From positions 62,001-126,000 of the forward strand of contig VGVY01000001.1 of the NCBI GenBank assembly GCA_016873835.1: DNA of 64,000 nt, given 5' to 3'. A program made the translations under genes and the position numbers. The notes beneath the pieces are model-generated. The model was not told where the DNA came from. It searched no databases and saw nothing but the letters and a program-made list of their open reading frames with translations. Source of the DNA: Ignavibacteria bacterium. Lineage in GTDB: Bacteria > Bacteroidota > Ignavibacteria > Ignavibacteriales > Melioribacteraceae. Of the stretch, positions 19,953 to 29,486 are shown piece after piece; position 1 is the stretch's first letter, and every line of letters begins with the position of its first letter.

Positions 19953-20780
19953 ATGAAAAATAAATTTATTCTATTAGTTATCATAATTACATCTAACTTA
20001 CTTGCTCAATCGACTGTAAATTTTTTCCCTTCGAAATTAAACGTGCATCCGTTTACTGCAAATTTTCTTGAACCTAAGCTTGGATTTCTTTTTCACTTTT
20101 CAAAAAATGATTTACGTCTTGATATCGGAAATTCACTAGATATCCTACATATTGAAAATGCTGAACAAGAAATTATTTCTATTGGAGCGGATCTTTTCAC
20201 TTATTCGTTATTAAGAGGTGAAGAAAAATTCCATTTTCCAGTCGACGCAATTGATTATTTATTTGGACTTAACGCTTCTTACAAAAGAATTAAAGAGAAT
20301 TATGAATATGGATTTCGTTTTCGATTAAGTCACATTAGCGCTCATTTTGTAGATGGTCATTATGATGGTCCAAATCAGCAATGGAGAGGTATGGTAAACC
20401 CAATTGTATACAGTAGAGAATTTATTGAACTAATGCCTTTTTATACCTTTAATTCTTTTCGGGTATATGCTGGAATTACATTTATCTTTCATATCGATCC
20501 GGCAGAATTAGGAAAAACTGATTTTCAAATTGGATGTGACTATTTCTTGAATGAAATTTTTTCAAATTCTTGTGTACCATTTTTCGCTTACGATTTAAAG
20601 CTTAACAAAATTGATAAATATGCTGCAAACAATACATTGATGGCTGGATTGAAATTCGGTAAACCCTTCTCGAAAGGATTTAAATTATATTTTCAATACT
20701 ATTCTGGTAAAAATTTTCATGGTGAGTATTATTATGAAAACAAAAAATATTTTTCATTCGGCTTAAATTTGGATTTATAA
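19953..20780 (+). CDS. Outer-membrane protein, probable DUF1207 family
   Basis: 275 residues with a signal peptide ending near residue 19 (NLLAQ|S). The rest looks like paired beta-strands of an outer-membrane barrel, with the stretch FRFRLSHISAHFVDGHYD and an aromatic last strand (KKYFSFGLNLDL). The former resembles DUF1207 proteins of Bacteroidota and Chlorobi; this assignment is from memory of the family pattern. Function unknown. Located 18 bp after the GT2 gene and 1 bp before the S2P gene, so probably co-transcribed with both. Confidence 0.6.
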   Translation: MKNKFILLVIIITSNLLAQSTVNFFPSKLNVHPFTANFLEPKLGFLFHFSKNDLRLDIGNSLDILHIENAEQEIISIGADLFTYSLLRGEEKFHFPVDAIDYLFGLNASYKRIKENYEYGFRFRLSHISAHFVDGHYDGPNQQWRGMVNPIVYSREFIELMPFYTFNSFRVYAGITFIFHIDPAELGKTDFQIGCDYFLNEIFSNSCVPFFAYDLKLNKIDKYAANNTLMAGLKFGKPFSKGFKLYFQYYSGKNFHGEYYYENKKYFSFGLNLDL

Positions 20781-20781
20781 A

Positions 20782-21783
20782 ATGAGCAATACTTTTTCCG
20801 ATTACTCACAATCATCTGCAATTATTCCACAAAAGAAAAATTCGTTCATTATTCACATAATACTGTTTATCATTACATTCATAACTACAATCATTGCCGG
20901 CTTAGAGTGGACAACCGGCAAAATGGGTCCATATGAATTCAATGATCTTGTTCATGGACTTCCATATTCCCTATCAATTCTTTTTATTTTAGCGTGTCAT
21001 GAGTTTGGTCATTATTTTGCAGCAGTATATCATAATGTAAAAGCTACACTTCCATTTTTCATACCATTTCCACCAATCGCTGGGTTTTTCAATTTTGGGA
21101 CGATGGGTGCTGTGATAAAAACCAAATCAGTAATTCCAAATAATAAAGCCATGTTCGATATTGGTGTTGCTGGTCCTATTGCTGGATTTATTGCATGCTT
21201 AATTGTATTGATTTATGGTTTTACTCATTTACCCACTGTCGATTATATTTTAAAAATTCACCCGGATTATTTTAGTCCTGAATATGGAAAGGAAGGGATT
21301 AATTTAGAATTTGGCAGTACTTTTCTTTTTGAAATTCTACGATATCTATTTACAAACCCTCAAGATTTCATTCCTCCAATGTCTGAAATTTATCATTATC
21401 CCTATTTGTGCGTTGGCTGGTTTGGTTTATTTGTAACAGCGATGAATTTAATTCCAGTTGGTCAGCTGGATGGCGGACATATTCTTTACGGGATGTTTGG
21501 TGATAAGATTCATGAAGCTTTTGCAAGCATTGCAATGTTACTGCTCGGTGCGTTAGGGCTAATTGGGCTGCTGAATGCTTTTATAAATTTAAATATAACT
21601 TTCGGTTGGAGCGGTTGGTTATTTTGGGCGTTCATTTTATATTTCTTCATTAAAGTGAAGCATCCCCCGGTTCCTTATTTCGAAAAACTAGATATTAGAA
21701 GAAGAATTATTGGTTATTTAGCTATGTTGATTTTTATACTGTCATTTTCGCCAACGCCATTTATTATATCTCTAACTAATTAG
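20782..21783 (+). CDS. Site-2 protease-like M50 membrane metallopeptidase
   Basis: 333 residues, about seven TM helices. Zinc ligands are H73 and H77 in CHEFGHYFAA and Asp230 in NLIPVGQLDGGHI, the family M50 arrangement. A PFFIPFPP loop and GVAGPIAGF TM segment follow the first motif, as in the FtsH-independent S2P group of Bacteroidota and plants (EGY-like). It would cleave TM segments of other membrane proteins inside the bilayer. No PDZ domain is seen, so it is not RseP. Last of the GT2-DUF1207-S2P run. Confidence 0.9.
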   Translation: MSNTFSDYSQSSAIIPQKKNSFIIHIILFIITFITTIIAGLEWTTGKMGPYEFNDLVHGLPYSLSILFILACHEFGHYFAAVYHNVKATLPFFIPFPPIAGFFNFGTMGAVIKTKSVIPNNKAMFDIGVAGPIAGFIACLIVLIYGFTHLPTVDYILKIHPDYFSPEYGKEGINLEFGSTFLFEILRYLFTNPQDFIPPMSEIYHYPYLCVGWFGLFVTAMNLIPVGQLDGGHILYGMFGDKIHEAFASIAMLLLGALGLIGLLNAFINLNITFGWSGWLFWAFILYFFIKVKHPPVPYFEKLDIRRRIIGYLAMLIFILSFSPTPFIISLTN

Positions 21784-21798
21784 TGATTGAAAAGTAAC

Positions 21799-21830
21799 TT
21801 GACTTGTGTGCAAATGATTAATTACCTTTG
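21799..21830 (+). promoter_or_regulatory. Bacteroidota-type promoter of the T9SS-related cluster
   Basis: TTG (21799-21801), 21 bp, then TACCTTTG (21823-21830), an exact match to the -7 TAnnTTTG consensus known from Bacteroidota. It sits in a 119-bp gap with transcription expected near 21837, ahead of the lipoprotein gene. No other clear signal is in the gap. Confidence 0.55.
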
Positions 21831-21902: not shown

Positions 21903-22790
21903 ATGATTAATTCTTTTTTAATACATACCAAATCCGCATTCCTTATGATTATGAAATTATGCCCGCTTAGAGTTTTTGCTTTTATATTTTTTTCAATTGG
22001 ATTATTGTTAATTACATCTTGCGATGAAATAGGGAATGAAACAATTGAACAAACGACATTAGAATATAAGATTATTGGGATCACTGCCCCTACAAATTAT
22101 TTCTATTCTGCTTCTGACTCGTTATTGATAACATCAATTCAGTTTCAAGATTCAGACAACATTGATAAAATTTGGGCTAGTATTAAATCTATAGATAGTA
22201 AAGTTACTATAACATCGAGATCTGATCTTTTTGATGACGGGAATAATCAAAAAAATGGCGATGTAAAAGCAAATGACAATATATATTCTGGAAGGATTGC
22301 AGTAAGTAAAAAATATTCTTCTGGTAAATATCACATCGAATATTTTCTTGAGGATAAAGTCCGAAAATCTCCGGAGAACGTTACTAAAGTAGCATCACAC
22401 ATTTTTAATTATAATAATAACCAAATTCAGTATTCTCCAATTATTTCTAATTTGTCAATTCCTAATGCTGTTAATCGTGAACAGTCCTTTGTATTTACAA
22501 TTAAGGTTGAAGATCAAAATGGCCTTGCAGACATTTCACAAGTATATTTTAAGCTTTATAGACCAGATGGTTCATTGGTTGATCCACAAAACGGATTAGG
22601 TTATTTCTTAATGGTTGATGATGGAAATTTAAATGTATATGGCGATCAAATTGCCGGTGATGGGATTTACTCATTCAAAAATTTATTCAGTGCTACAGCT
22701 CAACTAGGAAAATGGAAATTTGAATTCCAAGCTGCTGATAGATCAAATAGAACTAGTAATATTATTATTCATGAAATGACTGTTAATTAA
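21903..22790 (+). CDS. Lipoprotein of unknown function
   Basis: 295 residues from the first ATG, but ATGs at 21945 and 21951 are also in frame. The second of these would place a clean lipoprotein signal peptide at the N-terminus with lipobox LLITSC, Cys at residue 24 (residue 40 from the first ATG), followed by Asp-Glu. The mature part has two repeats of an Ig-like beta-domain type (SNLSIPNAVNREQSFVFTIKVED; GIYSFKNLFSATAQ) with DGxxxxGD loops. Immediately followed by the sorting-domain protein, so the two probably act together at the cell surface. Confidence 0.75.
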   Translation: MINSFLIHTKSAFLMIMKLCPLRVFAFIFFSIGLLLITSCDEIGNETIEQTTLEYKIIGITAPTNYFYSASDSLLITSIQFQDSDNIDKIWASIKSIDSKVTITSRSDLFDDGNNQKNGDVKANDNIYSGRIAVSKKYSSGKYHIEYFLEDKVRKSPENVTKVASHIFNYNNNQIQYSPIISNLSIPNAVNREQSFVFTIKVEDQNGLADISQVYFKLYRPDGSLVDPQNGLGYFLMVDDGNLNVYGDQIAGDGIYSFKNLFSATAQLGKWKFEFQAADRSNRTSNIIIHEMTVN

Positions 22791-22792
22791 CC

Positions 22793-24376
22793 ATGATAAA
22801 CTTTTTTTCTAATAATAAGAATTACATATTGATTGTTAGCATTGTATGCTTGGCAGCTTCTTTAAATGCACAAAACTTACCATTGGATTTTAAGCTAAGT
22901 ACAAATGTATTGAATAAAACCGCAGATAAAACTCCGCTTGGTAATACTGTTGAAAAAATTGAATTTGTTGCTGATACAATTTGGATAGCAACTTCAAAAG
23001 GATTAAGCAAATCAACAGATAACGGAAATTCATGGACCAACTTCTATAAAACAGAAGCATTTGGAGAAGAAGGAATTTCTGCTATTGGTTACCAGAATGG
23101 TGTTGTTTGGACTTCTACATGGCATCTGGAAGAATTATTTGGAAGTAGCATAGGTGTTGGCTCTGGATTACGTTATTCTGCATCTGGTGGAAAATCTTGG
23201 ATTAAAATTGAACAACCGGTTGATAATAAATCTGATACGATCATTGTTTATGGTAACAATAATTTGAAAGCAAATCCTACTACTGTTCCACAAGAAAATT
23301 TTATTTATGATTTAGCTTTCACAACAAATACTATTTGGTATGCCGCTAAAGCTGGCGGATTAAGAAAATCGACTGACATGGGTAAAACATGGAAGAAAAT
23401 TGTTCTTCCACCTGATAATCTCAATTCTATAAAACCAACAGATCAGTTAAATTTCAAGTATGACCCAAGTATTCATTTGAATCATAGAGTATTTTCAATT
23501 TTGGTTATTGATGATAACACACTTTATGTCGGCACAGCAAATGGGATTAATAAAACTACTGACGGTGGAATTTCTTGGGTAAAGTTCAATCATACAAATC
23601 AATCTAAACCGATAAGCGGAAATTTCGTTCTTTCTCTTGAGCAAAATAAATTTGATAATTCTATTTGGGCTGCAACGTGGAAAGCAGAAGGAGCTACTGA
23701 GTATTGGGCAGTTAGCTCCTCAACCAATAGTGGCAATACTTGGGAAACTTATTTATCTGATTCACGAACATTGGACTTTGGTTTCAAATATATTCAACAG
23801 AATAATCAGATAATTTCTGCAGATATATTTGCAGCAACTCAAGACGGGATGTTCCGTTCCAGCAATAATGGTATTACTTGGATTTCAGCACCAACAATTG
23901 TTGATCAAGCTACTAACATTTCATTAGGGACAAGACATTTTAGAACTGTTGAAGTAAAAAAGAAGAATGATAACACATATGATATTTGGCTAGGTTCAAA
24001 TCGTGGACTTGCAAGACTTAACGAATCAACTGGATTTTGGACTGGAATTTGGAAAGTGTTTCTTGCTTCGCCAGAATTGAAATCAATTACAGAAGTGTTT
24101 GCTTTTCCAAATCCTTTTTCGCCTCTTAAAGAAAAAACCAATATTAAGTATGGTACAACACAATCAACTAATGTAACTATAAGATTATTTGATTTTGGTA
24201 TGAACTTAATCAAAACTTTAATTCAAAACGCTCCTCGTGGTGAAAGTACAGAACAAATTGAAACTTGGGATGGAAAAGATGAATTTGGTAAAGTTGTACC
24301 AAACGGAGTATACTTCTATCGGTTGGATTTTGGCAACGGTGAACCGTTATTCGGCAAATTAATTGTATTAATGTAA
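22793..24376 (+). CDS. Surface protein with Asp-box repeats and T9SS type A sorting domain
   Basis: 527 residues. Signal peptide ends near residue 26 (SLNAQ|N). The body shows six degenerate Asp-box/BNR-like repeats (NGNSWTNF, GGKSWIKI, MGKTWKKI, GGISWVKF, SGNTWETY, NGITWISA), as in beta-propeller glycosidase-like proteins. The last ~85 residues have the FlgD-like/T9SS C-terminal domain pattern FPNPFSP .. VTIRLFDFGMN .. WDGKDEFGKVVPNGVYFYRL .. GKLIVLM. The expected route is Sec, then T9SS with the sorting domain as signal. Catalytic residues are not visible, so it may bind instead of cut. Two PorV/PorQ-type genes follow. Confidence 0.8.
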   Translation: MINFFSNNKNYILIVSIVCLAASLNAQNLPLDFKLSTNVLNKTADKTPLGNTVEKIEFVADTIWIATSKGLSKSTDNGNSWTNFYKTEAFGEEGISAIGYQNGVVWTSTWHLEELFGSSIGVGSGLRYSASGGKSWIKIEQPVDNKSDTIIVYGNNNLKANPTTVPQENFIYDLAFTTNTIWYAAKAGGLRKSTDMGKTWKKIVLPPDNLNSIKPTDQLNFKYDPSIHLNHRVFSILVIDDNTLYVGTANGINKTTDGGISWVKFNHTNQSKPISGNFVLSLEQNKFDNSIWAATWKAEGATEYWAVSSSTNSGNTWETYLSDSRTLDFGFKYIQQNNQIISADIFAATQDGMFRSSNNGITWISAPTIVDQATNISLGTRHFRTVEVKKKNDNTYDIWLGSNRGLARLNESTGFWTGIWKVFLASPELKSITEVFAFPNPFSPLKEKTNIKYGTTQSTNVTIRLFDFGMNLIKTLIQNAPRGESTEQIETWDGKDEFGKVVPNGVYFYRLDFGNGEPLFGKLIVLM

Positions 24377-24388
24377 AATGAGCAATAT

Positions 24389-25381
24389 GTGAAAAAAACT
24401 CTAATTCTAATATTACTTTATTGCACTGCATTTGCTCAGTCAAAAGTTGATGAAATTAACAGTATGCCCGGTGTTTTTAGTCGAATGGGATTTGGTGCTC
24501 GTGGAATAGGAATGGGCAATGCAATCTCTTCAATAACATCTGGAAATTTAGTTTCATATTACAATCCAGCCTTGCCAGTTTTTCAGGAAGGAAATTTATT
24601 TCAAACTTCTTATTCATTTTTAAGTTTGGATAGATCGCTTAATTTTTTGAATTTTACTCGAAAATTTGAGTTCGGAAAAGTTGAAGCAGACGATGGAACT
24701 ACAAAACCAAGATCAATAGCTGGAATTAGTGCCGGCATAATTAACTCTGGTGTTTCAAATATTGATGGTAGAGATAATCAAGGGCGAAAATTTGCAACTT
24801 TATCTACATCAGAGAATCAATTCTTTGTTGCTGTTGCAAATCGATTTTCAGATAGACTAGCAATTGGAATTGCATTTAAATTTTACCATTACAAACTATA
24901 TGAAAATTTTACATCTAGCGGACTTGGTTTTGATGTTGGTGCAATTTATAGTTATAATGAATCACTCACTGTTGCTCTAATGATTTCAGACCTTAACACC
25001 AAATATGAATGGGATAGCGGAGCAATTTATGGTTCTTCCGGCACTACGACAAAGAATAGATTTCCTCTTCTAAAAAAACTCGGTGTTTCATACAGATTCA
25101 AAGAGCAAAAAATAATTGCTGCAATAGAAATTGAAAACAGCAATGCTAAAACAAATTATTTAAGGGTTGGAGCAGAATACAATATTTATCAAGATTTATT
25201 TTTCAGAGCTGGGTTGGATAAGCTGAATTTATCAAACTTTGAAAATTCGGTTCGACCTTCAATTGGGTTTTCTTATTTTTATAACGTAAGATCATTGAGA
25301 CTCGGATTAGACTACGCTTTTGTTTTAGAACCCTATTCTTCGAGTGATCAACATATAATTGGTGTAAATATTAATTTTTAA
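24389..25381 (+). CDS. PorV/PorQ family outer-membrane barrel protein
   Basis: 330 residues. GTG start. Signal peptide ends near residue 17 (CTAFAQ|S). N-terminal ARGIGMGNAISSITSGNLVSYYNPALP is the FadL/UPF0164/PorV-PorQ-type barrel motif, and the C-terminus ends in an aromatic strand (HIIGVNINF). PorV is an outer-membrane part of the T9SS that hands cargo to the attachment complex; PorQ relatives are linked to cargo modification. Directly after the sorting-domain protein, so a dedicated cargo-handling role is reasonable inference. Confidence 0.75.
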   Translation: MKKTLILILLYCTAFAQSKVDEINSMPGVFSRMGFGARGIGMGNAISSITSGNLVSYYNPALPVFQEGNLFQTSYSFLSLDRSLNFLNFTRKFEFGKVEADDGTTKPRSIAGISAGIINSGVSNIDGRDNQGRKFATLSTSENQFFVAVANRFSDRLAIGIAFKFYHYKLYENFTSSGLGFDVGAIYSYNESLTVALMISDLNTKYEWDSGAIYGSSGTTTKNRFPLLKKLGVSYRFKEQKIIAAIEIENSNAKTNYLRVGAEYNIYQDLFFRAGLDKLNLSNFENSVRPSIGFSYFYNVRSLRLGLDYAFVLEPYSSSDQHIIGVNINF

Positions 25382-25384
25382 ATT

Positions 25385-26287
25385 ATGAAAAAAGCATTAT
25401 TCTTTTTTTATTTTCTTACTACAATAGCATATGCTCAAACATCGAGTAGCTCAGGCTTATCGTTCCTAAAACTTGGTTCCGGAGCAAAAAATATTGCAAT
25501 GAGTGATCTTGGTGTTGTTGGAAATAATGATTTATCATCAGCTTATTACAATCCTTCTTTATTAATTCATAACAATACTTCTCAAATTTCTTTTACACAT
25601 AATAGTCTGTACATCGATTTATCATCAGAAGTTGTGAATGCTAGTTTCAGATTGTTTGGTATACCGTTCGTATTAGGTTTGAATACTACAACTATTTCTA
25701 ATATTGAGGTGCGCTCTCGTCCTGGAGAAATTGAATCAACTTTTAATGCAAATTACTTTTCTGCTGGAATATCTACAGCATTTAGTTTTTGGGAAAATAT
25801 TAATACTGGAATTACATTCAAATTTATTTATGAAAATCTGTTTAGTGATGAAGCCTCAGGATTCGGAATTGACTTAGGTGCAACTTATTCTGCGCTGATG
25901 GACAACTTTACCTTAGGTGCTTCTTTAAGAAACATTGGTTCAATGAACCAATTACGATTAGAATCTACAAAACTGCCAATTGATCTTAGAGCCGGTGCAC
26001 AGTATAAACTTGATTTTAATGATTATATGATTTCTCTTAATTCTATAGCCGGAATTCAAAAATATTTACACGAGAGTGGAATTCATGCTCATTTAGGCGG
26101 CGAACTTTCATATAATAAATCATTCTTTCTTAGAATTGGTTTCATTTCTGGACATGACTCCAAGAACCTAAGTACTGGTTTTGGAATTTTGTGGAAAAGC
26201 TTAAATATTGATTATGCATATGTTCCAGTTAAATATGGTCTTGGAGATTATCATATACTAACATTTATATATACATTTGATAATTGA
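25385..26287 (+). CDS. Second PorV/PorQ family outer-membrane barrel protein
   Basis: 300 residues, starting 3 bp after the first PorV/PorQ gene and sharing its layout: signal peptide ending near residue 18 (AYAQ|T), then GLSFLKLGSGAKNIAMSDLG and SSAYYNPSLL, then alternating strands and an aromatic last strand. The pair look like diverged paralogs; the second is shorter. Probably ends the lipoprotein/T9SS operon: an 84-bp gap follows with no obvious signal. Whether it is functional PorV, PorQ or another UPF0164 member is not decided by sequence. Confidence 0.75.
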   Translation: MKKALFFFYFLTTIAYAQTSSSSGLSFLKLGSGAKNIAMSDLGVVGNNDLSSAYYNPSLLIHNNTSQISFTHNSLYIDLSSEVVNASFRLFGIPFVLGLNTTTISNIEVRSRPGEIESTFNANYFSAGISTAFSFWENINTGITFKFIYENLFSDEASGFGIDLGATYSALMDNFTLGASLRNIGSMNQLRLESTKLPIDLRAGAQYKLDFNDYMISLNSIAGIQKYLHESGIHAHLGGELSYNKSFFLRIGFISGHDSKNLSTGFGILWKSLNIDYAYVPVKYGLGDYHILTFIYTFDN

Positions 26288-26371: not shown

Positions 26372-27334
26372 TTGATAGAAGTAATAAAATATACCGAAGA
26401 ATGGAATGAAAAGTGGGATGACTTTGTTCATTCTTCAAACAATGGAACGATGTTTCATCTTCAAAAGTTTCTCGAATATCATGTTCCTGGGAAGTTTCAG
26501 TTTAATCATTTATTATTTATTAAAAAGAAAAAAATATTTGCTGTTTTACCTGGTTCATTAATTGATGGAGTATTTGAGTCTCCGATTGGTGCAAGTTATG
26601 GGTCAATCGTTACAAAGGATATAAAATTTTTTGAAGCAATGGAAATTGTCTCTTCACTATTGGAATATGGCAGAAAAAATAGAATCAGAGAATTTTTACT
26701 AACTCCAGCGCCAATGATTTATGAAAAGTATCAAAATCAGAATTTAGATTTTGCTATGTTATGGCAAGGTTTCAATTTCCAGCTGCACTATATTTCAAGT
26801 GCTATTAAACTACATGATGAAAAAGAAATTTTAGAGAGGTTTTCGCCCACTGTCCGTAGAAATATCAGAAAGACATTTAATGATTTCAAGTTAAGAGTGG
26901 AAGTGAATGATAAGTATGATGAATTTTATCCCATTTTAGTTGAGAACAAAGCTCGTCACGGCGTAAAGCCGACACATTCATACGAAGATTTAATAAAACT
27001 GAAAAAGTTACTGCCCAATAGATTGAAACTATTTATGGTTTATCATGAAGAAGAGCCGATTGGCGGTTCACTTATGTTTTATCCAAATAGACAAGTCGCG
27101 TTGTGTTTTTATAATATGTTGAAGTACGAATATTCTGATTATAAACCGATTCATAGAGTAATGTATGAAGTTGTTAAAGATGCTAAAGAAAATGGATACC
27201 AGTATGTAGATATTGGGGTGTCACAAGATACTAAAGCAGTTAACCCAATGACTCCATCTATGAGCTTGATAGAATTCAAAGAGAAGTTTGACGCAAAAAC
27301 AATTATGCGAAATACCTTTCATATCAAACTATAA
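26372..27334 (+). CDS. FemAB/GNAT-like acyltransferase
   Basis: 320 residues; two GNAT-like folds typical of the FemAB-type superfamily can be followed: an N-terminal one with GTMFHLQKFLEYH and PIGASYGSIV, and a C-terminal one with EEPIGGSLMFYPNRQVALCFYN and GYQYVDIGVSQD. Members transfer amino acids from aminoacyl-tRNA to peptidoglycan stems or acyl groups to surface sugars. It is followed 8 bp later by two glycosyltransferase genes, so a role in surface polysaccharide or cell wall is likely. Start is TTG at 26372; an ATG is not available nearby. Substrate unknown. Confidence 0.75.
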   Translation: MIEVIKYTEEWNEKWDDFVHSSNNGTMFHLQKFLEYHVPGKFQFNHLLFIKKKKIFAVLPGSLIDGVFESPIGASYGSIVTKDIKFFEAMEIVSSLLEYGRKNRIREFLLTPAPMIYEKYQNQNLDFAMLWQGFNFQLHYISSAIKLHDEKEILERFSPTVRRNIRKTFNDFKLRVEVNDKYDEFYPILVENKARHGVKPTHSYEDLIKLKKLLPNRLKLFMVYHEEEPIGGSLMFYPNRQVALCFYNMLKYEYSDYKPIHRVMYEVVKDAKENGYQYVDIGVSQDTKAVNPMTPSMSLIEFKEKFDAKTIMRNTFHIKL

Positions 27335-27342
27335 TTTTTCAG

Positions 27343-28461
27343 ATGCAGATAAAAAAAGTTTGCATAGCATTTCTTGGTAATTCACTTCATGATTCTCGAA
27401 TTGTCAATCTTACAAATTCACTTAAAGAAGAGAAATGTACCGTATCAGTTATTTCATTTGATTGGTTTATTTCTGATAATGAATATTTTGATGATACATA
27501 TAAAATATTCAAACTTCATAAAGGTCATTACTCTTTATTTTTCTATTTGAGGTTTGCATATCTTTTAATAAAGGAGTTATTTAAAAATAAATCTGACATT
27601 TACTTTGCGGAAGATTTGTACACTCTGCCATTCGTAGCAACGATTGCAAAAATTAGAAAAGCTAAATTATATTACAACAGCCGTGAACTATATGCATTCT
27701 TAGGAGGATTGAGGAATAGACCTTTCTTACAAAAAATGGTGAAATCAATTGAGCAATTTTATATTAAAAAGGTTGACTTGGTGCTTACAACTGGAGAAAT
27801 GGATTCAGAATTTTTAAAGAAATTTTATAAGATTACAAACACAATTGAAATTAGAAATATTCCTTTACTGCAAATGCCAGCACAGACTGTTAATTATAGA
27901 GAAATGTTTGATATACCAAGGAATAGTTTAATTATGATTTATCAAGGAGTTTTGTTAGTAGGGAGAGGAATTCCAATCATTTTACAAGCTATGAAAGAAC
28001 TGCCGGAACTTTATTTAATTATAATTGGTGACGGTGAACAGAAAAATAATTTTGCACAAATGACAACTGAATTAGGTATTTCATACCGTGTATTTTTTAT
28101 TGGGACAATAAATCAGAAAGAATTAATCAACTTTACAGCCGGCGGTGATATCGGTCTTTCATTAATTGAAAATATTAGCATCAGTTATTATCATGCATTA
28201 CCTAATAAATTATTTGAATACATCATGGCTGGTATTCCAGTTCTTGCCAGTGCTCTTCCTCAAATGAAAAAAATCATTGATGATTATAATGTTGGCGAAA
28301 CAATTCAATTAGAAAAATCTGAAGAACTCATTAACTCTCTTAGTAAATGGATTGATCAGCCACTACTTCTAAAAGAATATAAAAAGAATTGCTTAGTTGC
28401 AGCTCAAGAATTGAATTGGCAAAGCGAGTTCAAAAGAGTCCGTAATATTTTATTGTATTAA
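27343..28461 (+). CDS. Family 4 glycosyltransferase
   Basis: 372 residues, GT-B fold. The N-terminal half has a weak start (CIAFLGNSLHDSRIVNL), and the C-terminal half shows the GT4 nucleotide-sugar motifs: YQGVLLVGRGIPIILQAM, LIIIGDGEQ and the EX7E-type region around NKLFEYIMAGIPVLAS. Cytosolic or peripheral. It lies 8 bp after the FemAB-like gene and 2 bp before a GT9, so these three genes form a small surface-glycan run. Donor and acceptor unknown. Confidence 0.88.
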   Translation: MQIKKVCIAFLGNSLHDSRIVNLTNSLKEEKCTVSVISFDWFISDNEYFDDTYKIFKLHKGHYSLFFYLRFAYLLIKELFKNKSDIYFAEDLYTLPFVATIAKIRKAKLYYNSRELYAFLGGLRNRPFLQKMVKSIEQFYIKKVDLVLTTGEMDSEFLKKFYKITNTIEIRNIPLLQMPAQTVNYREMFDIPRNSLIMIYQGVLLVGRGIPIILQAMKELPELYLIIIGDGEQKNNFAQMTTELGISYRVFFIGTINQKELINFTAGGDIGLSLIENISISYYHALPNKLFEYIMAGIPVLASALPQMKKIIDDYNVGETIQLEKSEELINSLSKWIDQPLLLKEYKKNCLVAAQELNWQSEFKRVRNILLY

Positions 28462-28463
28462 TA

Positions 28464-29486
28464 ATGGCTAAACAAAAAAGAATCTTAATTGTAAGACCAG
28501 ATAGAGTTGGTGACGTTGTTCTTTCAACACCTCTTCCAAGAGAAATTAAAAAAGAATTCCCCAATAGTTTTGTCGCTGTATTATTGAAAAAATACACAGC
28601 TGATATATATTTGAATAATCCTTACGTAGATAAAATACTTTTGATTGATGATGAAGATGATAATTCATTGATATCCTTTTTTAGACAAGTAAAAGAAATT
28701 CGAAAATATAAATTCACACACTCTTTAAGTCTTCTTCCTAAAGAAAAAATAAATTACCTATTATTTTTTGCCGGAATACTTAATCGTATAGGAGTTGGGC
28801 ATAAATTTTATCAGTTTATAACCTTTTCAAGATATGTTTCAAGAAATAAATACATTCCGCTTAGACACGAAGCAGATTATTGCATGGACCTTGCCCGAAA
28901 GATTGGAATTAAAACGGATGATATAGCTACAGAAATATTCTTGACTGATGAAGAGAAAAAGCAATTTGCAAATAAAAGAAAAGAATTGTTAGGTGATAAA
29001 AAATTTTTAGTTGGTATCCATGGCACCAGCGGTAATTCATCACCAAACTGGACTCTAACCAGATATAAAGAATTAGCTGAAATGCTTTGTAACAAAGATA
29101 ACCTAAAAGTTTTAATAACAGACAACATAAAGCATGATATTATTGACAATCCGAAAATTATTTTTCCGACTTTGAGTAACAATCTTAGAGAATTAATTTT
29201 CACAATTGCTTGTTTAGATGTTATGATTTCATCTAGCACTGGGCCAATGCATTTGGCTGCAGCATTAAAAGTGAAAACAATTTCCTTATTTTGCCCAATG
29301 ACTGCTTGCTCTCCAAAATTATGGGGTCCGATGGGGAATGAAAAAAGAATAATTCTCCCTGATGAAAATTATTGTAGTAACAAATGTCCTGGAGACCCAA
29401 AGATTTGTAATTTCGAAGGAGAAGGGGGTATTAATGTATCAAGTGTTTACAATATTGTAATTGAAGAGCTCACAAAATTTAAGTGA
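28464..29486 (+). CDS. Family 9 glycosyltransferase (heptosyltransferase-like)
   Basis: 340 residues. ILIVRPDRVGDVVLSTPLPREIK at the N-terminus is the GT9/WaaC-F signature; the C-terminal half has the sugar-nucleotide motif SSTGPMHLAAALKVKTISLF. Such enzymes add heptose to the lipopolysaccharide core from ADP-heptose, on the cytosolic face. A four-cysteine cluster near the end (CSNKCPGDPKIC) is common in GT9 proteins. The next features are the SRP RNA and the uvrC end. Confidence 0.88.
   Translation: MAKQKRILIVRPDRVGDVVLSTPLPREIKKEFPNSFVAVLLKKYTADIYLNNPYVDKILLIDDEDDNSLISFFRQVKEIRKYKFTHSLSLLPKEKINYLLFFAGILNRIGVGHKFYQFITFSRYVSRNKYIPLRHEADYCMDLARKIGIKTDDIATEIFLTDEEKKQFANKRKELLGDKKFLVGIHGTSGNSSPNWTLTRYKELAEMLCNKDNLKVLITDNIKHDIIDNPKIIFPTLSNNLRELIFTIACLDVMISSSTGPMHLAAALKVKTISLFCPMTACSPKLWGPMGNEKRIILPDENYCSNKCPGDPKICNFEGEGGINVSSVYNIVIEELTKFK

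What the first reader, a model, noticed from the sequence alone, without database searches (positions are those of the whole stretch)
21903..26287. Lipoprotein, T9SS-sorting-domain protein and two PorV/PorQ paralogs in one transcription unit
Four genes with 2-12 bp spacing: a lipoprotein with Ig-like repeats, an Asp-box repeat protein with a FlgD-like C-terminal sorting domain, and two PorV/PorQ-type barrels. PorV is normally part of the general T9SS, so a pair of paralogs beside one cargo may be a dedicated secretion or anchoring module. The dedicated role is inference.
Basis: partly seen in the sequence, partly recalled or inferred. Interest (0 to 1): 0.5.

Follow-up and report, generated by a model that had tools for sequence, protein, structure and literature searches.

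The report
Conserved four-gene outer-surface protein module
Four neighbouring genes, kept together in nearly all relatives examined, encode a lipoprotein, a propeller-shaped protein with a secretion tag, and two outer-membrane barrels that may hold the propeller on the cell surface; the module looks ancient and, as far as could be searched, undescribed.

Summary
A (lipoprotein), B (Asp-box propeller with a type IX sorting domain), C and D (FadL/PorV-type barrels) lie 2, 12 and 3 bp apart. Strong matches to C, B and D occur in 135, 135 and 134 of 146 order-level genomes, and to A in 133. In the 80 best named loci, B precedes C in 80, D follows in 79 and A precedes in 69; the rest run into contig ends. 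The module also occurs elsewhere in the class and phylum. It is therefore a conserved module, not an accessory cargo. It is not the general machinery: PorV, PorQ, PorU, PorZ and BamG matches lie elsewhere in this genome. D passes the PorV/PorQ family cut-off; C does not, though its predicted fold matches PorV and FadL equally. B's sorting domain is better conserved than its propeller and ends in GKIxV, like the PorU sortase (22 of 23) but not like this genome's PorZ or ordinary cargo. I infer that B is exported by the T9SS and stays docked on a cognate barrel. Secretion, interaction and function were not shown. Genomes with SprA but no C match exist, so the module is not needed for type IX secretion itself.

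The parts
21903..22790 (+). Gene A: lipoprotein (Cys40, CDEIGNE after the lipobox) with two choice-of-anchor X (Ig-like) stretches
   Evidence: match in 133 of 146 order-level genomes; at least 2 acidic residues in the six after Cys in 41 of 45 scored in-order sequences
22793..24376 (+). Gene B: signal peptide, Asp-box beta-propeller, C-terminal sorting domain
   Evidence: strong match in 135 of 146 genomes
22925..24067 (+). B residues 45-425: beta-propeller domain (bounds approximate)
   Evidence: model md69c5609b969, Z 24-27 to many propellers, PorZ 5m11 at 24.3 over 293 residues
24101..24373 (+). B residues 437-527: Ig-like C-terminal sorting domain; GKLIV near the end at 24353-24367
   Evidence: mean pairwise identity 58% in order and 48% outside, against 53% and 38% for the propeller; terminal GK pattern 70 of 73 and 33 of 33
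24389..25381 (+). Gene C: FadL/PorV-type outer-membrane barrel (diverged lineage), GTG start
   Evidence: strong match in 135 of 146 genomes
25385..26287 (+). Gene D: PorV/PorQ-family outer-membrane barrel
   Evidence: 132.3 bits to NF033709, cut-off 90; profile hits PorV 6h3i_F at E 1.4e-19; strong match in 134 of 146 genomes
20782..21783 (+). Upstream M50-type membrane protease gene: conserved neighbour, looser spacing to A
   Evidence: upstream in 62 of 64 named loci with room, median gap to A 115 bp
19953..20780 (+). Upstream DUF1207 gene: frequent neighbour within the order

Best explanation
A-B-C-D encodes a cell-surface complex of the attachment type. [quoted passage not shown] It is then not released: its uncleaved domain stays docked on a cognate FadL/PorV-type barrel (D slightly more likely than C), as PorU stays on PorV and PorZ on PorQ in Porphyromonas. 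The second barrel and the probably surface-facing lipoprotein A complete the complex, with B's propeller as the binding head. Shown here: gene content, predicted folds of B and C, conserved linkage, and sorting-domain sequence features. Inferred: secretion, retention of the sorting domain, the physical complex, and what the head binds.
For: Linkage: B upstream of C in 80 of 80 named loci, D in 79 of 79 with room, A in 69 of 69 with room; median A-B gap -4 bp. Matches in 133-135 of 146 order-level genomes; found in other orders and classes. C and D orthologues fall in two separate clades (C 100/99, D 98/90). C-D distances covary most after correction for M50 (partial r 0.77; 0.58 in order). B's sorting domain is better conserved than its propeller. 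Its terminal GK pattern is shared with PorU (22 of 23), while of 27 ordinary tails 21 are KK-type and 1 fits the GK pattern. A's acidic residues after Cys (41 of 45 against 7 of 42 other lipoproteins) fit a published surface-lipoprotein rule (PMC12578637, passages). Precedent: PorU:PorV and PorQ:PorZ subcomplexes (PMC5562754, abstract and one section). A review hypothesises that cognate PorV-like barrels protect CTDs from cleavage (PMC10202324, passages).
Against: No experiment. The GK ending fits PorU but not this genome's PorZ (ends SKIAVIKK), although PorZ too keeps its CTD in Porphyromonas. No control cargo family was run for the claim that the CTD is conserved above the body. C is below the PorV-family cut-off and sits with FadL-type proteins in the tree (98/98), though its profile hits PorV-family paralogues and no FadL here. 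L240-L242 have C-A-B with no D nearby. Outside the order 10 of 24 scored A sequences meet the acidic rule. B-CTD covaries with D only slightly more than with C (0.43, 0.36), and B's propeller covaries with D more than its CTD does (0.50). A hairpin shared by PorU and PorZ CTDs was reported as functionally not relevant (PMC11285876, passages).
Confidence: 0.5

Rival explanations
1. C or D is a specialised shuttle that carries B out of the translocon and hands it to PorU for cleavage, so B is an ordinary cargo with a private route.
For: Type B cargo use cognate PorP/SprF shuttles, often encoded beside them (PMC12618676, abstract and Discussion); 6 of 8 PorV-family genes in this genome lie near a CTD gene.
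Against: B's CTD does not reach the type B model (CHU_C 18.8 bits against 27) and no PorP/SprF match is listed for C or D. Conservation of B's terminal domain above its propeller is unexpected for a discarded signal (inference, no control family).
Confidence: 0.17
2. C and D are FadL-like import channels for hydrophobic or glycan ligands, with B and A as surface capture proteins, a T9SS-dependent analogue of SusCD-type uptake.
For: C's fold matches FadL and toluene channels as well as PorV (Z about 26-31). B's propeller resembles GH74 and sensor propellers. Other loci here pair a TonB-receptor-like gene, a PorV-family barrel and a CTD protein (receptor naming by eye).
Against: Near-universal presence across 2.0-5.8 Mb genomes of the order is unlike a substrate-specific uptake locus (inference), and no TonB receptor is seen among the genes flanking this operon.
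Confidence: 0.15
3. The module is an extracellular outer-membrane assembly or quality-control device, similar in layout to the Bacteroidota BAM dome (FadL-type BamG plus surface lipoproteins, one with a propeller), but with its head delivered by the T9SS.
For: BamG chains are structurally close to C (Z 25.8-26.9). BamG-BamH and the propeller lipoprotein BamI give a precedent (PMC12578637, passages). Core-gene-like distribution.
Against: C is not BamG: BamG matches of 224-277 bits lie elsewhere in 13 of 13 genomes searched, here at C1:138708-139868. The purified F. johnsoniae BAM did not include T9SS components (PMC12611786, passages).
Confidence: 0.13

Closest known systems
PorQ-PorZ and PorV-PorU subcomplexes of the T9SS attachment complex
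   Same: A FadL-type barrel plus a CTD-bearing surface protein; PorZ also has propellers; B's terminal motif resembles PorU's
   Different: PorU, PorV, PorQ and a PorZ-type protein are at other places in this genome. B has one propeller and no PF21544 match is listed for it. Two barrels and a lipoprotein are in one operon.
Type B CTD cargo with cognate PorP/SprF shuttle
   Same: Barrel encoded beside a CTD protein
   Different: B's CTD is below the type B model's cut-off and the barrels are FadL/PorV-type with no PorP/SprF match listed
BamG-BamH-BamI part of the Bacteroidota BAM
   Same: FadL-type barrel with surface lipoprotein and propeller partners
   Different: A BamG match lies elsewhere; B carries a T9SS sorting domain; no BamA among the neighbouring genes scanned
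NCBIfam PorV2 (NF052325)
   Same: PorV-family paralogue
   Different: C 40.2 and D 49.2 bits, cut-off 325

Membership tests
PorV/PorQ family (NF033709) | Score over the curated cut-off of 90 bits, gene D | tested here: met
   132.3 bits
PorV/PorQ family (NF033709) | Score over the curated cut-off of 90 bits, gene C | tested here: not met
   71.4 bits; fold matches PorV at Z 30.4-30.7, tied with FadL
General T9SS PorV (NF033710) or PorQ (NF033711) | Equivalog cut-offs 250 and 220 bits | tested here: not met
   C 17.8 and 39.2, D 60.8 and 77.1; the genuine ones score 265.3 and 275.6 elsewhere
T9SS type A sorting domain (TIGR04183) | Cut-off 23 bits for B | tested here: inconclusive
   20.8 on the protein, 23.8 in the genome scan
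PorZ | PF21544 N-terminal propeller in B | tested here: not met
   not among B's Pfam matches to E 1; the genome's match over the cut-off is at C80
Attachment-type CTD protein and barrel pair | CTD kept after secretion and bound to the barrel | not testable with these tools
   only CTD sequence features were compared
Type B CTD and PorP/SprF pair | CHU_C type CTD over cut-off and PorP/SprF barrel | tested here: not met
   CHU_C 18.8 against 27; no TIGR03519 match listed for C or D to E 1
BamG (NF053685) | C or D is the genome's BamG | tested here: not met
   best match is C1:138708-139868, 249.2 bits (cut-off 250); no match listed at the operon

The most novel reading that the evidence does not exclude
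Probability: 0.33. Interest if true: 0.75.

Novelty: new variant of a known kind. Interest (0 to 1): 0.52.

Why it matters
Why PorU and PorZ keep their sorting domains while ordinary cargo lose theirs is unsettled; the review passages seen suggest that cognate barrels protect them (PMC10202324). A conserved further candidate pair, with a terminal signature shared with PorU, would give an independent test of that idea. It would also suggest that FadL/PorV barrels have been used repeatedly as surface docking bases in this phylum (PorV, PorQ, BamG and this pair), and it names a near-universal set of four genes in the order with no assigned function in the libraries scanned here.

Tried and rejected
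C as BamG: rejected, BamG matches lie elsewhere in 13 of 13 genomes. C or D as the general PorV or PorQ: rejected. B as PorZ: rejected. Module as a required T9SS part: not supported. SprA is over the cut-off in 61 of 61 genomes searched, including 28 same-class genomes that I picked for a weak or missing C match. The C search scored at most 5 candidates per genome, so some absences may be misses, but in several of these genomes every candidate was scored without a match, for example G198, G267 and G328.

The tree puts C beside the FadL-type proteins (98/98) but has long branches and no PorV or PorQ from other species. The C profile prefers PorV-family paralogues and lists no FadL. I leave C's exact origin open.

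The Bacteroidota-type promoter-like match 21799-21830 (consensus recalled) is not above chance in the window (2 found, 2.60 expected). Sigma-70-type promoter and terminator matches were also at chance.

The acidic-residue scan scored 45 of 68 A sequences; my lipobox pattern missed the rest, several of which plainly have a lipobox. The ordinary-CTD tails are 27 read from the 30 best-scoring of 64 places, so they lean to typical ones. Papers describing this operon: none seen in the listings of searches; most subscription papers and all preprints are not held.

Full report
What is there. The window is part of a 2.75 Mb assembly in 187 contigs. It is unnamed; the best named relatives of gene C are Melioribacter, Stygiobacter and other Ignavibacteriales, mostly MAGs. 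Four genes lie 2, 12 and 3 bp apart on the + strand: A, a lipoprotein with two choice-of-anchor X stretches; B, an Asp-box propeller with a C-terminal sorting domain; C and D, outer-membrane barrels. D is a PorV/PorQ-family protein by the curated cut-off. C is a diverged relative below it.

Structures. C was modelled at mean pLDDT 87.5. It matches FadL and PorV equally (Z 30.7 to 3pgr over 274 residues at 3.0 A and to 8gl6_F over 286 at 4.4 A; 30.4 to 6h3i_F over 282 at 3.7 A), with BAM chains that I take as BamG at 25.8-26.9. B was modelled at 91.1 as a propeller followed by an Ig-like domain. Its propeller resembles many others, among them PorZ (Z 24.3, 293 residues, 3.2 A); that match alone says nothing specific. 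D was not modelled. Its profile (42 rows) finds PorV in the PDB at E 1.4e-19, while C's (14 rows) finds none at E 0.01.

Distribution. I searched 146 order-level genomes with each protein. Counting the best match per genome from the tables: C is strong (E 1e-24 or better) in 135, B (1e-40 or better) in 135, D (1e-37 or better) in 134, and A matches (E 1e-3 or better) in 133. Seven genomes lack all four: G003, G039, G054, G056, G068, G069 and G123. They are 66-93% complete; six of them are in 370-550 pieces. Below the C orthologue, the listed matches fall to 31% identity or less. One apparent break (G140) has a run of N beside it (200 N in the stretch).

Gene order. one search kept the best 80 of 174 named loci. 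B is just upstream of C in 80. D is downstream in 79, with a contig end in 1. A is upstream in 69, with a contig end in 11. The full A-B-C-D is seen in 68. These loci probably overlap the 146 genomes. Median gaps are A-B -4, B-C 8 and C-D 12 bp, but M50-A 115 (62 loci) and D to the GNAT gene 119 (54 loci), so the four are the tight unit. DUF1207 and an M50 protease commonly precede it.

Outside the order. A phylum-wide search with the C profile matched 185 of 395 genomes at E 1e-5, paralogues included. I fetched the 20 best same-class loci. C was framed in 19 (in L211 my ORF caller missed it). Of these 19, D follows in 19, B precedes in 18 (1 contig end), and A precedes in 17 (1 contig end, 1 absent). 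Of 19 further stretches (one same-class, the rest other classes), C was framed in 17. B is near it in 14 (in 3 of them as C-A-B) and absent in 3. D follows in 9, is absent in 7 and lost at a contig end in 1. A is near in 7 and absent in 10. This set was picked mostly by score, so it is no estimate of frequency. C and D orthologues form two clades (C 100/99, D 98/90) that both reach outside the class, so the pair looks older than the class.

Not the general machinery. Elsewhere the genome has PorV (265.3 bits, cut-off 250) behind a PorU gene, PorQ (275.6, cut-off 220), a PorZ-type protein (PF21544, 46.8 bits, cut-off 27), SprA, and a BamG match just under its cut-off (249.2, cut-off 250). SprA is present in 61 of 61 genomes checked, including 28 same-class genomes chosen for a weak or missing C match. 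So the module does not seem to be needed for type IX secretion.

Is a PorV paralogue beside a CTD gene unusual here? No. Eight PorV-family genes pass the cut-off, and six, this locus and PorU-PorV included, have a CTD gene within two genes on the same strand, far above a rough chance figure. What sets this locus apart is its conservation.

The sorting domain of B. Across 73 in-order sequences, mean pairwise identity is 58% in the sorting domain and 53% in the propeller; across 33 outside sequences (those scoring over 250 bits) it is 48% and 38%. A domain that is cut off and discarded would not be expected to be the better conserved part (inference; no control family was run). Its end fits a GKIxV-type pattern in 70 of 73 and 33 of 33. 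PorU of 23 chosen order-level genomes ends likewise in 22. Of 27 ordinary CTD tails from this genome, 21 end in a KK-type pattern and 1 fits the GK pattern. This genome's PorZ ends SKIAVIKK and fits neither, so the signature is PorU's, not a general mark of retained CTDs. In Porphyromonas, PorU and PorZ keep their CTDs and sit on PorV and PorQ (PMC5562754, abstract and one section; PMC10202324 and PMC11285876, passages).

The lipoprotein. At least two acidic residues follow the lipid cysteine within six positions in 41 of 45 scored in-order A sequences, against 7 of 42 other lipoprotein-like ORFs in the loci. Outside the order it is 10 of 24. The rule comes from Bacteroides work (PMC12578637, passages), so surface exposure of A is a suggestion.

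Which barrel holds B? D is closer to PorV and PorQ by sequence, and B's sorting domain covaries slightly more with D than with C (0.43 against 0.36; in order 0.32 against 0.18). But B's propeller covaries with D more than its sorting domain does (0.50), and some genomes keep C-A-B without D nearby. C and D covary most with each other (0.77; 0.58 in order), which suggests that they work as a pair. These correlations are weak evidence.

Mechanism, with confidence 0.5: B is carried out by the T9SS and stays docked through its intact sorting domain on the C/D barrels, with A alongside. What the propeller binds is unknown. Rivals are a private shuttle, a FadL-like uptake device, and a BAM-like assembly device.

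Literature. The listings of searches show no description of this operon. Of papers I saw: PMC12618676 (abstract and Discussion), PMC5562754 (abstract and one section), and passages of PMC10202324, PMC10994853, PMC11285876, PMC12578637 and PMC12611786.

Noticed in passing
G000:C4:71802-79172, C58:52-9000, C12:11717-20535, C2:94013-102853 (L089, L087, L088, L085): Other clusters pairing large TonB-receptor-like genes (by eye), a PorV-family barrel and a sorting-domain protein; possibly T9SS-dependent uptake systems.
   Followed up: partly
L151:6984-7637, L162:6984-7637, L202:6995-7642: An extra lipoprotein-like gene of 215-217 aa is inserted between C and D in these loci.
   Followed up: no
L240, L241, L242: Rearranged order C-A-B with no D found in the fetched stretch, in three genomes outside the class.
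   Followed up: no
G067:C9:35174-36709, G044:C20:34559-36067: A second, diverged copy of B lies upstream of the operon; its match stops before the final residues of the sorting domain. Second B copies also in G081, G085 and G142.
   Followed up: no
G000:C46:2406-7019: A 1767-aa frame matches the PorU sortase model in two parts, below the cut-off; similar frames are listed in at least 19 of the 23 genomes.
   Followed up: no
window 19953-21783: DUF1207 and an M50 protease gene are frequent upstream neighbours of the operon in the order; their relation to it is unknown.
   Followed up: partly
window 26372-29486: A FemAB/GNAT gene, then glycosyltransferase- and heptosyltransferase-like genes (named by eye) follow the operon; an envelope-sugar context.
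   Followed up: no
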